NCBI RefSeq assembly: GCF_025371035.1
Contig: NZ_JANZXB010000016.1
Coordinates: 1 to 60,554, forward strand
DNA from: Sphingomonas sp. LC-1
GTDB lineage: Bacteria; Pseudomonadota; Alphaproteobacteria; Sphingomonadales; Sphingomonadaceae
Length of the DNA stretch: 60,554 nucleotides
Reading direction: 5' to 3'
Positions 44,586 through 49,963 of this stretch are shown here, piece after piece. Made by a program: the position numbers and the translations under genes. Within the stretch, counting starts at the first letter, position 1. Every line of letters starts with the position of its first letter. The notes beneath the pieces were generated by a model. That model searched no databases, was not told the origin of the DNA, and saw only the letters and a list, made by a program, of their open reading frames with translations.

Positions 44586-44867
44586 ATGGTCGAGGCTCGC
44601 TGGAACGGATCGGTCATCGCGAAGAGCGACGATACCGTGATCGTCGAGGGTAATCACTATTTCCCGGTCGAGGCCGTTGATCAGGCGGTCCTGCGGCCGA
44701 GCGAAACCACGTCGTTCTGCCCATGGAAGGGCACGGCACGATACTACGGCCTCCATGTCGATGGGGCCGACAATCCCGATGCCGCCTGGTACTATTCCGA
44801 TCCCAAGCCCGAAGCGGAGAAGATCCGGGACCGCATCGCATTCTGGAAGGGCGTGACCGTCACCTGA
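44586..44867 (+). CDS. DUF427 domain protein
   Basis: The 93-residue product spans the DUF427 domain: VIAKSDDTVIVEGNHYFPVE, LRPSETTSFCPWKGTARYY and PDAAWYYSDPKPEAEKIRDR. The conserved CPWKG and AWYYP/S are present. Function of the family is unknown. ATG 44586 fits the usual start. Confidence 0.92.
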   Translation: MVEARWNGSVIAKSDDTVIVEGNHYFPVEAVDQAVLRPSETTSFCPWKGTARYYGLHVDGADNPDAAWYYSDPKPEAEKIRDRIAFWKGVTVT

Positions 44868-45573
44868 CGCTGGCGTGGTCGATCACGATGCCGGTCGACC
44901 GAGGACCGCGACCTTCGCGCTCGTCGAGGCGCCTGTCTCGGCCGCGGTTTGCTCCAAATCGAAGTCGTTGCGATCGGGACCATGGTCTTCCGGAGGGGGT
45001 ACCCCGGCTGCAGTGGGCCGGACCGGCCGACGAGTTCCCGAATGACCGCCAAGCCAATGCCTTTCCGCTTCGTGGCGATCAGCACCGCGCCACATCGAAG
45101 AACGAGCCTGAGGAGGCGGAGCGCGCCGACGTCCCGGATGAATGGACCGGCCAGACAAGGGTATCTCGGTCGCCTCGGGGCGAAGCCCGGCTGAAGGAAT
45201 GGTTGCGGCGGCACGAGCGGTAGCCGACGGTCCTTTGAACCGAGATACGCGCGGAGCACGTTTCCGCAGGGATACATGAGCGGGAAGTCGTCGGGCGAGG
45301 CGTGGGAGCGGTTCCGCCGGAAGCAGATCCAGTATCTGCGCACGCTGTGCTTCGGAGAACGGGTGACACCGCAATCCAGCCTGGCGTCATCCCCGTAGCT
45401 TCAGAGGAACTCGGGCTCGCAATCGAGAACGTTCTGATATTAAGCATGTTTCTTCACCGTATCACCATGTCCATGCTGGACTGCACACGGGCTTCAGGCA
45501 ATGTACGTGCCTTGGTTCACGAGTTCTTCGAAGAACCAATCGGCCGTTCGGGCCGCTTCGGGAGGGGTAGAAG
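44868..45573. other. 706-bp stretch without a convincing gene
   Basis: No frame here looks coding along its length. On the minus strand near 45015-45064 one frame reads KGIGLAVIRELVGRSG, which resembles the G2 box of a histidine-kinase ATPase domain, but the flanks change frame and degrade, so at most it is a relic. The right end contains GGGAGGGGTAGAAG, the ribosome site for the vWA gene, and the stretch must hold the triad's promoter. Confidence 0.5.
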
Positions 45574-46251
45574 TTGACGGATTTCGGACAGACACCATTC
45601 GGAGCCGCGGAGTTCGCGGAAAATCCCGAACCGCGTTGCGCCTGCCTTCTTCTTCTGGACACGTCCATGTCCATGTCGGGCGCGCGCATCGCCGAACTGA
45701 ATGCGGGACTGTCGGCATTCAAGCAGGAACTGCTCTCCGACTCCCTGGCGTCCAAGAGGGTCGAGATCGCCGTCGTGACCTTCGGCCCCGTACGCGTCGT
45801 GTCCGAATTCACGTCGGTCACGAGCTTCTATCCGCCCGAGCTCACACCCGAGGGCATGACGCCGATGGGCGAGGCGATCGAACGCGGGATCGCACTGCTG
45901 CGGGCGCGCAAGTCGGAGTACAGGACGAACGGGGTCGCCTACTACCGACCGTGGGTCTTCCTGATCACTGACGGCGGTCCGACGGACTCCGTGACGGCGG
46001 CCACCGATGCCGTCCACCGCGGCGAGGCGGCCAAGGAATTCATGTTCTACTCGGTCGGCGTCGAGGATGCCGACATGTCGGTCCTCCAGAACATCGGCGT
46101 GCGTGCGCCTCTGAAGCTCAAGGGCCTCGCCTTCCGCGAGCTGTTCGCCTGGCTGTCGGCCTCGCTGAGTTCCGTCTCGAAGTCCAATCCGGGCGAGCCG
46201 GTGCCGCTCGCCAATCCCACGGCACCGGACGGCTGGGCGGTGGCGGGCTGA
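45574..46251 (+). CDS. von Willebrand factor A protein of a vWA-PP2C-kinase triad (TerY/YegL-like)
   Basis: The 225-residue cytoplasmic product is one vWA domain with an intact metal site: DTSMS at 29-33, the Thr at about 96 in MTPMGEA and Asp 133 in ITDGGPTD. This is the TerY/YegL type. Such proteins bind a partner through the metal ion. TTG 45574 is the start, with a strong GGGAGGGG before it. It stops 2 bp before the phosphatase gene, so the three genes form one operon. Confidence 0.93.
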
Positions 46252-46253
46252 GG

Positions 46254-47006
46254 GTGCCTGCCTGGAGCTGGGCGGGCGCCTCCTGCCGGGGCGTCTCGCA
46301 CGCCAAGACCGAAACGCGCAAGCAGGATGCCCTCTCCTGCTTCTCGGCGAACGACGGCGGCGTCCTCGTCGCGATCGTGTCCGACGGCGCGGGAAGCGCG
46401 AGCCATGGGGGAGAAGGAGCATCCCTCGTCTGCCGGACCCTTGCCGGAGCGCTCCGCGATCATTTCAGGACCGGGGCCGGCATGCCGGACGATGAGCGGA
46501 TCTGGCAGTGGGTGGACGACGCGCGCGACCGCATCGCGCTCGCGGCCGCCCAGCGAGCCCTGTCGCCACGCGACTTCGCCGCCACGATGGTGATGATCGC
46601 CTCCGACGGCGATCAGACGGTCGTGGCGCACGTCGGAGACGGCGCCGCCGTTGCGCGCGTCGACGGCGAGTGGAAGGCCGTGAGCTGGCCGGAACAGGGG
46701 GAATACGCCTCCACCACCTTCTTCGTCACCGACGATTCCGGACCTCGCATGAGAATCTCCAGGCACGATGCGGCGGTCGACGCGCTCGCCGTATTCACCG
46801 ACGGCATCGAACGGCTCGCGCTCGACCTGGGCAGGGAGGAGGCGTTCCAACCCTTCTTCCGGGGAATGATCAGACCCCTGGATGGCAAGGCGACGTCTGG
46901 TCCAGACCGCGACCTGGGGTTTGCGCTCGCCGCCTATCTTGACAGCCCTGCCGTCTGCGAACGCACCGACGACGACAAGACGCTGATCCTGGCCGTCCGC
47001 CGGTGA
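46254..47006 (+). CDS. PP2C-family protein phosphatase of the triad (YegK/PphC-like)
   Basis: The 250-residue product is a PP2C (PPM) phosphatase domain: KQDA near residue 23, the metal motif AIVSDGAGSASHGGEGA (Asp about 44), FAATMVMI, AHVGDGAAVA, FTDGIERLAL and TDDDKTLILAV. Arrangement and the SDGAGS motif match the atypical PP2C of E. coli YegK (PphC). It presumably reverses phosphorylation by the neighbouring kinase. GTG start; its stop overlaps the kinase start (GTGA), so production is coupled. Confidence 0.94.
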   Translation: MPAWSWAGASCRGVSHAKTETRKQDALSCFSANDGGVLVAIVSDGAGSASHGGEGASLVCRTLAGALRDHFRTGAGMPDDERIWQWVDDARDRIALAAAQRALSPRDFAATMVMIASDGDQTVVAHVGDGAAVARVDGEWKAVSWPEQGEYASTTFFVTDDSGPRMRISRHDAAVDALAVFTDGIERLALDLGREEAFQPFFRGMIRPLDGKATSGPDRDLGFALAAYLDSPAVCERTDDDKTLILAVRR

Positions 47007-49963
47007 CGGTACCTGCGCTCTTTCATAATGGCCGGCGAATCCAGCTGGGAAGGCGCATCGGCAAGGGCGGAGAGGGCGAGGTCTACGCCATCGACGGCAG
47101 GAAGAACGTCGCCCTGAAGTTCTATACCAGCCCGGATCCTGGCGACCGGGCCGGCAAGGTCATGGCGATGGTTCGGTCGGGTCTGGCCGAGAAATCGAAG
47201 CTCGTCTCTTTTCCAAGCGCCGTGGTCGAGGACGGGAAAGGCCGGCTGGTCGGCTTCCTCATGCGGCTCGTCCATGGCCATCAGCCGATCCACCACCTCT
47301 ACGGGCCGGCCGATCGCAAGGCGAACTTTCCGGGAGTGACCTACGCCTTCCTCGTGCATGCGGCGCTGAACGTCGCCCGTGCCGTGGCCGAGGTGCATCT
47401 GCGCAACTGCGTGATCGGCGACATCAACCATTCCGGCATCCTCGTATCGACGGCGGCGATGGTGGCGCTCATCGATGCCGACAGCTTCCAGATCACAGAC
47501 GGTGTAAGCGAATTCCTCTGCGCAGTCGGCGTACCGGAATACACGCCTCCGGAACTGCAGGGCCGCAGCCTCACTGGTATCAGACGCTCTGCGAACCACG
47601 ATGCATTCGGATTGGCGGTCATCGTCTTCCAGCTGCTGTGCTTGGGGCGCCACCCGTTCGCGGGCGCCTACGAGCACGGGGAGATGCCCTTGGAGAAGGC
47701 TATCGAGGAGCACCGCTTCGCCTATTCGACGAAGCGCGCCGTCGGGATGCGTCCGCCCCCCGGCACGGTCGCTCTCGGCGACTTCCCTCCTCCGCTGCGT
47801 GCAGCGTTCGAGGCCGCCTTCGATCCCGGAGCGCAGCGGCCGACCGCAGCGCACTGGGTCGCTCTCCTGGAGATGCTCGCGGGCGATCTGCGTCGCTGCC
47901 CATCCGACCCCCAACACCACCATTCGCGCAGCGCACCGGAATGTCCTTGGTGCCGGATAGAGAGTGCGGTGGGCGTCGTCCTCTTCCCGTCGTCCGGATC
48001 CACCAAACCTTCAGGCATCAATTCGTCGGCAGGCGGTTTCGATCTTCGAGCCGTTTGGGATGCGATCAAGGCCGTCCCGCTGCCTCCCGTGACACCGCCC
48101 GATCCGAGACTGCCGGACGTGAACCCCGCCGCATCGAAGGAGGCGCAGGGCGCGGCTCGAGCGATGCGGATTCAATGGACCCGCAACTGCGCTCTGATGG
48201 TCGTCGCGATCTGCGGCTATTTCGGTGCCCCGCTCTTCTCCGTGGGATGGATGCTCCTCGGGTTCTACAACGCCTTCCGCTTCGCTGTACCGCTCGGCGT
48301 CGGTAAGACGTTCAGGAAGCGCCGCGCGGACGCCGACAAGCAGTGGAACATCCGCCTCGACGAATGGCGAAATAGAAGCAGCGGCCGTGATGCACACAAC
48401 CTGCGAGCCTCGCTGACCACAGCGGTTCAGGAACTGCAGTCGGCACCGGAGCGGCTGCGCGCCGAGCTCGCGGGATATGATTCCCGAAGGCGGGAGACAC
48501 AACTTCGCGCCCATCTGGAGCGGCATCGCATCCGTGACGCGTCGATCAAGGGGATCCGCGACAATCTGAAGACGGCGCTTTCGAATGCAGGCATAAGGAA
48601 CGCCCTCCAGGTCAACGCCAGGAATGTCCTTGCCGTCAACGGCATCGGCCAAGCTAAAGCAAGATCGCTCGAGGCCTGGCGCCAGCAGGTCGTGGCAAGC
48701 TTCAGGTTCGACGTGAATCCCAACGCCACGGATGCTGCGGAAAAGGATAGGATCAAGCAGGACTACAAAAGGGCCGAGGATCGGCTGAAGGTCAGACTCG
48801 CCCAAGGCCCGAAGGAACTGGACGTCGCCGCCAGGAAGGCATTCGCCTGTCAGCAGGCGATCGATCCGACGCTCGCTCAGGCGGTCACCGACTTGAGACA
48901 GGCATGGAGGGACGACGAACTCGTCAACGTGGCCTTGCGCGAGAGGCCCGCCCGGCTCGGCCTCAAGGGTTTGATCCTCGTCTGTCTCGCAGGCGTCGGT
49001 ACGTCTCTCGGCCTGAACGCCCTTCCGGCCTTCGACTGGACCTCGCCGACGACCGCTGCGTCCACGAAATCCGAGGCCGCTCTGGACCGTTTCGACCCGC
49101 CCCGCTCGTTCAGGGTCGCACCAGGCCGAGGCGTACGGACCGTCAACGTACGTGCGGAGCCGTCCGACAAGGCCGAGGTGACTGGAAGGTTGCGGGCCAA
49201 TGCGATCGTGGCGGCCGTCGGCACGACCAAGTCCGCGGACGGTCGAGAGTGGCTCGCCTTCGTACGCGCCCAGGGCAAGCTCGGCTACGTGGCGGCCAGC
49301 CTGCTCAAACCGGTGGTGGCGGCGAAGACGAGCCAGAAGGCCTGCGCCGACGGGGCCTGGCCTTCACGCGCGCTGTGCGACGATGCGGCGCTAAGACGGC
49401 AGGATCGCGACGTCGATGCCGCATACCGACGCGCCGTCTCCGCCGCCCCGCCCCCCGATAGAGCAGCCTTCGAGAATGCACAGCGCGAATGGCTGGCAGG
49501 CAGAGCCGCCTGCGAAACCAAGCGCGCACCCCGAGCATGCCTGTCGAACCTCTATCGGAGCCGGCTCCTCGAATTGAAGACAGCCGTCAGACGCGAGAAG
49601 GCGCCCGAGCAGACACTTCAGGAAGCGCCATCCGTTGAGGCGGCTGCACCGACTTCCATTCCGAGGGAGACCCCGCCGGCCCTTCTCGGCAGCATGTCGT
49701 CTCTGGTATCCGCGGATGACTATCCCGCTTCCTCGATCCGCAACGCCGAAGCCGGTCGCGTATCGGTGCGGATGCACATCGACAGGTCGGGCTCCGCCAA
49801 TGACTGCGAGGTCGTCGTGTCGAGCGGATACCGGACGCTCGACGCCGCCACGTGCCGCCTGATGATTCGGAGGGCCCGGTTCGCGCCGGCTCGGGATGCG
49901 AACGGCAGAACCGTGGATGGGGTCGCCACGCAGTCGCTGACCTGGCAACTGCCGAGGGAATGA
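47003..49963 (+). CDS. Large membrane protein kinase with HhH and periplasmic SH3-LprI-TonB-C-like tail (YegI-like)
   Basis: The 986-residue product is built as follows. Residues 1-295: atypical Hanks-type kinase with G-loop GKGGEGEVY (21-29), ATP lysine K39, catalytic loop IGDINHSGIL (Asp 140; the usual Asn is Gly 145) and DADSFQ (158-163) for DFG. About 299-317: Cys/His-rich CP...CPWC. 396-432: two membrane helices. 440-640: coiled coil with a helix-hairpin-helix at about 540-556 (VLAVNGIGQAKARSLEAW). 651-673: third membrane helix. 710-770: bacterial SH3 (RTVNVRAEPSDKAEVTGRL, LGYVAASLLKP). 780-860: LprI-like with Cys pairs. 895-984: TonB C-terminal-like (AGRVSVRMHIDRSGSANDCE). Three helices put the kinase inside and the tail in the periplasm. 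The kinase-HhH part matches E. coli YegI; the tail is extra. Confidence 0.9.
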   Translation: MTVPALFHNGRRIQLGRRIGKGGEGEVYAIDGRKNVALKFYTSPDPGDRAGKVMAMVRSGLAEKSKLVSFPSAVVEDGKGRLVGFLMRLVHGHQPIHHLYGPADRKANFPGVTYAFLVHAALNVARAVAEVHLRNCVIGDINHSGILVSTAAMVALIDADSFQITDGVSEFLCAVGVPEYTPPELQGRSLTGIRRSANHDAFGLAVIVFQLLCLGRHPFAGAYEHGEMPLEKAIEEHRFAYSTKRAVGMRPPPGTVALGDFPPPLRAAFEAAFDPGAQRPTAAHWVALLEMLAGDLRRCPSDPQHHHSRSAPECPWCRIESAVGVVLFPSSGSTKPSGINSSAGGFDLRAVWDAIKAVPLPPVTPPDPRLPDVNPAASKEAQGAARAMRIQWTRNCALMVVAICGYFGAPLFSVGWMLLGFYNAFRFAVPLGVGKTFRKRRADADKQWNIRLDEWRNRSSGRDAHNLRASLTTAVQELQSAPERLRAELAGYDSRRRETQLRAHLERHRIRDASIKGIRDNLKTALSNAGIRNALQVNARNVLAVNGIGQAKARSLEAWRQQVVASFRFDVNPNATDAAEKDRIKQDYKRAEDRLKVRLAQGPKELDVAARKAFACQQAIDPTLAQAVTDLRQAWRDDELVNVALRERPARLGLKGLILVCLAGVGTSLGLNALPAFDWTSPTTAASTKSEAALDRFDPPRSFRVAPGRGVRTVNVRAEPSDKAEVTGRLRANAIVAAVGTTKSADGREWLAFVRAQGKLGYVAASLLKPVVAAKTSQKACADGAWPSRALCDDAALRRQDRDVDAAYRRAVSAAPPPDRAAFENAQREWLAGRAACETKRAPRACLSNLYRSRLLELKTAVRREKAPEQTLQEAPSVEAAAPTSIPRETPPALLGSMSSLVSADDYPASSIRNAEAGRVSVRMHIDRSGSANDCEVVVSSGYRTLDAATCRLMIRRARFAPARDANGRTVDGVATQSLTWQLPRE

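What the first reader, a model, noticed from the sequence alone, without database searches (positions are those of the whole stretch)
49100..49963. Kinase fused to a periplasmic SH3 / LprI-like / TonB-C-like tail
After a third membrane helix the kinase continues with an SH3 domain, a Cys-containing LprI-like module and a TonB C-terminal-like domain. I know of no kinase with this set; the E. coli relative ends far earlier. SH3 could read peptidoglycan, LprI-like parts bind lysozyme-type inhibitors and TonB-C domains contact outer-membrane or wall partners. The tail could sense envelope damage and signal to the cytoplasmic kinase and phosphatase.
Basis: partly seen in the sequence, partly recalled or inferred. 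Interest (0 to 1): 0.82.

Follow-up and report, generated by a model that had tools for sequence, protein, structure and literature searches.

The report
Stress kinase with a cell-wall-facing tail
A bacterial signalling kinase whose relatives work inside the cell carries an extra arm that probably crosses the membrane and is built of parts known from wall-binding and outer-membrane-contacting proteins, so it may report the state of the cell envelope.

Summary
The 986-aa ORF at 47003-49963 is one open frame: kinase, Cys/His motif, membrane hairpin, coiled coil with HhH-like helices, third hydrophobic helix, then SH3b (695-770), LprI (776-865) and TonB_C (893-984). Pfam puts SH3_3 and TonB_C over cut-off here; LprI is under it here but over it in three orthologues. 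AlphaFold2 models and PDB comparison agree. It is the kinase of a vWA-PP2C-kinase triad (TerY-P; E. coli YegL-PphC-YegI); one annotated E. coli YegI has 648 aa. Three further Sphingomonadaceae kinases carry the same tail with all six tail cysteines. The kinase C-terminus is a swappable slot: of 80 loci, 43 end in a C4 motif, 8 have a further hydrophobic helix plus a long tail (SH3-LprI-TonB_C, PG_binding_1, TPR or unassigned), 29 have neither. A second, distant triad family in the same genus ends in a related SH3-LprI-like tail. Best reading: a receptor form of the triad kinase that senses envelope state by PASTA-kinase-like logic; ligand unknown, periplasmic side inferred. The label 'lysozyme inhibitor' for LprI is weakly founded. 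New variant of a known kind.

The parts
45574..46251 (+). TerY/YegL-like vWA-domain protein, 225 aa
   Evidence: PF00092 32.2 bits, cut-off 23.8; a homologue beside the kinase in 77 of 80 loci; D-x-S-x-S and TDG motifs read (MIDAS label recalled)
46254..47006 (+). PP2C-type phosphatase (PphC-like), 250 aa, overlaps the kinase start by 4 bp
   Evidence: PF13672 158.2 bits, cut-off 24; a homologue in 79 of 80 loci
47003..49963 (+). kinase ORF with periplasmic-type tail, 986 aa
   Evidence: single open frame; homologues
47039..47896 (+). protein kinase domain (about residues 13-298)
   Evidence: Pkinase 30.8 bits as protein (cut-off 31.7), 34.1 bits in the genome search (over cut-off); K39, D140, N142, D158, D160 invariant in 37 rows; best PDB match of the full model is PknB
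47897..47953 (+). probable zinc-ligand motif C299, H305, C314-P-W-C317
   Evidence: C299, H305, C314, C317 invariant in 37 rows; zinc binding inferred
48137..48286 (+). membrane hairpin, residues 379-428
   Evidence: hydropathy; two adjacent helices in the model
48296..48937 (+). coiled coil with helix-hairpin-helix-like part, residues 432-645
   Evidence: model helices; aligned in relatives; HhH label recalled and used in plasmid annotations of relatives
48941..49015 (+). third hydrophobic helix, about residues 647-671
   Evidence: hydropathy, model helix 647-669, present in all 4 orthologues
49085..49312 (+). SH3b domain, residues 695-770
49328..49597 (+). LprI-like (PF07007) helical module, residues 776-865, with C781, C792, C837, C846
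49679..49954 (+). TonB C-terminal-like domain, residues 893-984, with C935 and C951

Best explanation
The gene is the kinase of a patchily spread vWA-PP2C-kinase (TerY-P / YegL-PphC-YegI type) signalling triad that has become a membrane receptor. Kinase, probable zinc site and coiled-coil/HhH part lie in the cytoplasm, held by a membrane hairpin. A third membrane helix carries an SH3b-LprI-TonB_C arm into the periplasm. Most likely the arm binds peptidoglycan or a wall-acting protein (SH3b, LprI) and reaches an outer-membrane partner (TonB_C). A change in the envelope alters the spacing or clustering of the arms, the coiled coil passes this on, the kinases phosphorylate each other and a partner chosen with the vWA protein, and the PP2C enzyme resets the switch. 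Shown here: gene order, domain content, conservation. Inferred: periplasmic side, sensing, clustering, roles of vWA and PP2C in this organism. Unknown: ligand and substrates.
For: Triad kept with the kinase: vWA 77 of 80 loci, PP2C 79 of 80. Same three-module tail in four distinct Sphingomonadaceae proteins with six invariant cysteines. Models and PDB matches support the three folds. Other kinases of the family carry peptidoglycan-binding domains in the same place after a further helix: L083 two PG_binding_1 stretches, 51.0 bits; L096 25.0 bits. A distant triad family in the same genus (L006, L155, L162) ends in an SH3-LprI-like tail; a profile of the four group A tails alone, run over 61 genomes, found the L006 tail over model positions 18-203 at E 2.2e-18, the only match besides the window that reaches into the SH3 part. 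E. coli YegI is described as a membrane-bound, autophosphorylating kinase that PphC dephosphorylates (PMC13232886, passages).
Against: No topology, binding or activity data. LprI is under the Pfam cut-off in the window itself. The tail is less conserved than the kinase (SH3 38-40%, LprI 29-40%, TonB_C 45-54%, kinase 64-75%). The positive-inside signal is modest: L050 and L051 each have two K/R in the 18 residues after the third helix. Group B tails are not recognised as LprI by Pfam; SH3_3 is under cut-off in L155 (18.9 bits) and not listed for L006 and L162. 72 of 80 related kinases have no such long tail (two of these frames are cut), so the core works without it. The linker 669-692 has pLDDT under 50, which does not suit rigid signal transmission.
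Confidence: 0.55

Rival explanations
1. The tail is an anchor that fixes the triad to the wall or a cell site; the signal is cytoplasmic (nucleic acid or metal read by the HhH part and probable zinc site), as proposed for TerY-P kinases ending in a zinc ribbon or OB-fold.
For: 43 of 80 related kinases end in a C4 motif (loose pattern), Zn_ribbon_Top1 by Pfam in L127; the Cys/His ligands are kept in the window; PMC11090510 (passages) suggests nucleic-acid binding for such C-termini.
Against: In the window the tail stands in place of the C4 end rather than beside it; other lineages put other wall-binding domains in the same slot, which fits sensing as well as anchoring.
Confidence: 0.2
2. The TonB_C end is the business end: it binds TonB boxes of outer-membrane receptors and reports receptor state (nutrient uptake, or a phage or toxin using a receptor) to the kinase.
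For: TonB_C is the best conserved tail part (45-54%) and resembles TonB-like proteins of the genus; fold match to receptor-bound TonB domains.
Against: Group B tails lack TonB_C yet keep SH3-LprI; the L083 and L096 type tails have none; TonB-box binding not tested.
Confidence: 0.15
3. The tail is an effector, not a sensor: SH3-LprI acts on wall hydrolases or lysozymes in the periplasm and the kinase controls it from inside.
For: The LprI-domain protein ScwA changes levels of peptidoglycan hydrolases (PMC7933661, abstract and passages).
Against: ScwA had no role in lysozyme resistance; fusion to a kinase is the usual layout of a receptor (general knowledge).
Confidence: 0.07
4. The fusion is an assembly or frame artefact, or the tail stays in the cytoplasm.
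For: Hydropathy of the third helix is moderate (peak 1.85).
Against: Three further distinct proteins share the architecture; codon-position G+C is alike along the gene; six invariant tail cysteines.
Confidence: 0.03

Closest known systems
E. coli YegL-PphC(YegK)-YegI
   Same: Gene order vWA, PP2C, kinase (an IS1 transposase stands between pphC and yegI in that record); kinase 31.3% identical over residues 9-549; membrane-bound kinase and its phosphatase (PMC13232886, passages)
   Different: That YegI has 648 aa, without an SH3b-LprI-TonB_C tail
TerY-P triads of CoCoNuT and stand-alone defence systems
   Same: vWA + PP2C + Ser/Thr kinase with C-terminal extension (PMC11090510, passages; PMC7699616, passage)
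   Different: Described C-termini are zinc ribbon or OB-fold; here an arm after a third membrane helix. PADLOC listed PD-T4-6 models for the kinase (29.6 bits) and no family for the vWA protein
PASTA kinases such as PknB
   Same: Kinase in the cytoplasm, wall-binding ectodomain; the full model's best PDB match is the PknB kinase domain
   Different: No PASTA; different ectodomain, membrane part and gene partners
Synechocystis kinase-TM-SH3b (gi 1006577)
   Same: Kinase, membrane segment, SH3b (PMC1262709, passages)
   Different: No LprI or TonB_C described there
TonB energy transducers
   Same: C-terminal domain
   Different: Kinase instead of the N-terminal energy-coupling helix

Membership tests
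TerY-P / YegL-PphC-YegI triad | adjacent TerY-like vWA and PP2C genes with the kinase | tested here: met
   PF00092 32.2 bits, PF13672 158.2 bits; kept in relatives
TerY-P / YegL-PphC-YegI triad | Ser/Thr kinase with a zinc-binding motif behind it | tested here: inconclusive
   C299, H305, C314, C317 invariant in 37 rows; no Pfam zinc family listed there; whether this is the zinc ribbon meant in PMC11090510 was not checked
TerY-P / YegL-PphC-YegI triad | kinase activity and reversal by the PP2C enzyme | not testable with these tools
   residues kept; reported for E. coli
PASTA kinase | extracellular PASTA repeats | tested here: not met
   no PASTA among Pfam matches up to E 1
TonB energy transducer | TonB C-terminal domain | tested here: met
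TonB energy transducer | N-terminal membrane helix with a His for ExbB/ExbD (recalled) | tested here: not met
   TonB_C sits at the end of a kinase; no His in the third helix of 4 of 4 proteins
LprI (PF07007) family | PF07007 match over the curated cut-off | tested here: inconclusive
   not met in the window (17.7 against 22), met in 3 of 3 orthologues scanned
LprI (PF07007) family | four conserved cysteines | tested here: met
   C781, C792, C837, C846 invariant in 4 proteins; conserved cysteines of the family per PMC7933661

The most novel reading that the evidence does not exclude
TerY-P triads have a receptor branch: the kinase C-terminus is a swappable sensor socket, used inside the cell with zinc-ribbon or WYL ends and, in several lineages, pushed through the membrane with wall-binding domains. 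In Sphingomonadaceae the SH3-LprI(-TonB_C) arm detects attack on the wall (phage tail lysozyme, competitor amidases) and turns on a kinase defence programme from outside the cytoplasm, independent of nucleic-acid sensing.
Probability: 0.15. Interest if true: 0.85.

Novelty: new variant of a known kind. Interest (0 to 1): 0.6.

Why it matters
What triggers YegI/TerY-P kinases is open; [quoted passage not shown] Natural versions with a peptidoglycan- or outer-membrane-type ectodomain give a handle: the ectodomain can be purified, its ligand sought and the signal applied from outside. It also suggests that Gram-negative bacteria have reached a PASTA-kinase-like layout by another route, perhaps more than once.

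Tried and rejected
Artefact reading rejected because of the orthologues. ExbB/ExbD-coupled TonB function judged unlikely. A direct lysozyme-inhibitor role for the LprI part is not adopted. Phage carriage: one viral-contig scan gave 2 relatives; the frame of L177 ends in a C4 motif and that of L178 in a hydrophobic stretch, neither in this tail. Plasmids: 50 records with the core kinase, 40 listed; a search with the tail gave 7 records, all matching from query residue 172 on (linker and TonB_C) and annotated as TonB proteins, so no kinase with this tail was seen there (records very near the window's genome may be left out).

Papers: searches listed no paper whose title or shown abstract describes a TerY-P or YegI kinase with a periplasmic tail; I read passages of few of them. 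Rajagopalan and Dworkin 2018 and 2020 and the DOI that I recalled for Anantharaman 2012 are not held. No exhaustive architecture search (Pkinase + TonB_C over all bacteria) was possible.

Dropped before counts: the kinase tree has 91 rows; L064 (cut frame), L036-L044 (divergent) and the duplicates L002 and L003 were left out, L045-L049 were never put in; it is a quick tree with several long branches, rooted on group B by me. L051 and L130 have the same tail DNA and count once. The match list is cut.

Full report
WHAT IS THERE. The ORF at 47003-49963 (+) codes for 986 residues in one frame. Pfam finds Pkinase 15-225 (30.8 bits, cut-off 31.7), SH3_3 713-769 (30.2, cut-off 27), LprI 792-858 (17.7, cut-off 22) and TonB_C 906-978 (49.8, cut-off 24.6). 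The genome search scored the kinase domain at 34.1 bits, over the cut-off. Outside the kinase fold, hydropathy flags 394-421 and 649-677. The full-length AlphaFold2 model (37 rows, mean pLDDT 85.0, pTM 0.47) gives the kinase, two adjacent helices 379-408 and 410-428 (hairpin), a long coiled coil, HhH-like helices, a third helix 647-669, a low-confidence linker, a beta domain 695-770, a helical domain 776-865, another linker and a beta-alpha-beta domain 893-982.

THE TAIL IS REAL AND CONSERVED. The two closest, L050 (Sphingomonas echinoides, 57% over residues 1-648) and L051 (a Sphingomonadaceae MAG, 50%), carry the same tail. A search of 397 genomes of the family found L130, whose tail DNA equals that of L051, and L131, a further member; both have a genus code other than the window's. 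In the four distinct proteins the order SH3-LprI-TonB_C is kept and all six tail cysteines (781, 792, 837, 846, 935, 951) are invariant. LprI is over its cut-off in the other three: 30.0, 30.1 and 28.3 bits. SH3_3 is over cut-off in the window and L050 only. Identity to the window is 64-75% in the kinase, 38-40% in SH3, 29-40% in LprI, 45-54% in TonB_C and 12-19% in the third helix.

TOPOLOGY. The kinase is at the N-terminus, a hairpin returns the chain, and one more helix takes it across. In all four proteins two or three R/K stand directly before that helix, but L050 and L051 also have two R/K within 18 residues behind it, so charge alone is modest support. The tail cysteines are even in number and invariant. 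LprI proteins found elsewhere in the genus look exported by eye. All this points to the periplasm, but it is inference.

THE SYSTEM. Upstream lie a vWA protein (45574-46251) and a PP2C phosphatase (46254-47006) that overlaps the kinase by 4 bp. Of 80 loci, 77 have the vWA and 79 the PP2C homologue; the misses (L077, L121, L125) lie near contig ends. This is the TerY-P layout (PMC11090510, passages); yegL-pphC-yegI of E. coli has it too, with an IS1 transposase between pphC and yegI in the record looked at. PADLOC lists PD-T4-6 models for the kinase (29.6 bits), one weak model for the PP2C protein and nothing for the vWA protein. K39, D140, N142, D158 and D160 are invariant in 37 rows, the loop reading GD-x-N in place of the usual HRDxKxxN (usual motif recalled); a paper on E. 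coli YegI has 'lacking conserved motifs' in its title (cited in PMC13232886 and PMC12189002; not held).

A SWAPPABLE C-TERMINUS. Of the 80 loci 43 end in a C4 motif (loose pattern; Pfam Zn_ribbon_Top1 in L127). Eight have a further hydrophobic helix and a long tail: L050 and L051 (SH3-LprI-TonB_C), L083 (PG_binding_1, 51.0 bits, two stretches), L096 (PG_binding_1, 25.0 bits), L112, L126 and L114 (no Pfam match), L121 (TPR). Of the other 29, 25 are 625-670 residues long, L092 ends in a WYL domain, L059 is 762 residues long and was not assigned, and L064 and L111 are cut frames. S. echinoides has both kinds on one contig, L050 with this tail and L066 with a C4 end. On a quick tree of 91 kinase domains 'periplasmic tail' needs 5 changes, of which starred branches force at least 2; 'SH3-LprI' needs 2, but one origin is not excluded by starred branches. 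Gains cannot be told from losses.

A SECOND TRIAD FAMILY. In the same genus G011, G056 and G723 have another vWA-PP2C-kinase triad (G723 is 53% identical to G011's kinase). The kinase is 28-31% identical to the window's, has the usual D-x-K-P-x-N loop and lacks the hairpin/HhH part. A hydrophobic segment precedes the tail in L006 (2.59) and L155 (2.09; a second, borderline one at 455 lies in its SH3 part); in L162 none there passed the threshold. Its C-terminus aligns with the SH3-LprI part, cysteines included (L162 runs off its contig), and has no TonB_C. Pfam lists no LprI there and a weak SH3_3 (18.9 bits) in L155 only. A profile of group A tails alone found the L006 tail at E 2.2e-18, positions 18-203; the other matches at 1e-15 start at position 118 or later. 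A profile of both groups, over 61 genomes, found SH3 and LprI parts together only in the window and in G011, which are in the profile; ten other matches in eight genomes cover one part. So an SH3-LprI arm goes with two distant triad kinases, by a shared module or by separate origin.

MOBILITY AND CONTEXT. The triad kinase is patchy: 7 of 397 family genomes match at E 1e-30 or better, own included and one over 164 residues only; 18 of 385 class genomes at 1e-20, own included. No window ORF of 100 aa or more outside the triad stretch matched L050 or L051 at E 1e-8. L050 has a serine recombinase upstream; L051 a DUF3363 protein upstream and integrase-like and transposase-like ORFs downstream (the last two labels by eye).

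HOW IT PROBABLY WORKS. See Best explanation. SH3b is the part best linked to peptidoglycan by structure, LprI to hydrolase control by one published case (ScwA), TonB_C to outer-membrane receptors (general knowledge). The name 'lysozyme inhibitor' should not be used as evidence of function. The ligand cannot be named from sequence.

KNOWN OR NEW. Kinase plus SH3b across a membrane is in print (PMC1262709, passages), and TerY-P triads are described with zinc-ribbon or OB-fold C-termini. My searches listed no paper on a TerY-P/YegI kinase with an extracytoplasmic arm (searches under Tried and rejected; coverage incomplete). I therefore rate it a new variant of a known kind.

Noticed in passing
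G000:C9:13487-17607 (locus L179): The window's genome holds a ter cluster with four TerD-family ORFs over cut-off; 7 other triad-bearing genomes searched have no match, and no triad gene matched in the fetched 19 kb.
   Followed up: partly
L006:3-3552, L155:67-3276, L162 (triad, cut at the contig end): Second, distant vWA-PP2C-kinase triad family with canonical catalytic loop and an SH3-LprI-like tail.
   Followed up: yes
L083:5001-8081, L096:5001-7769, L112:5001-7793, L126:5001-7835: Rhizobial triad kinases with a further helix and a PG_binding_1 (L083, L096) or unassigned (L112, L126) tail; a C-terminal Cys-containing region looks shared by eye.
   Followed up: partly
L051:8002-8784 (-): DUF4236 protein with an SH3_3 domain next to the triad; a possible partner or only a mobile-element gene.
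   Followed up: no
L092:5001-7355: Triad kinase of Desulforhopalus ends in a WYL domain (29.6 bits, cut-off 21.8).
   Followed up: no
L050 and L066 (contig NZ_JH584235.1): Sphingomonas echinoides carries two such kinases on one contig, one with this tail and one with a C4 end.
   Followed up: partly
window 44792-45447 (-): Overlapping minus-strand frames upstream of the triad looked like transposase remnants by eye; Pfam gave no match.
   Followed up: partly
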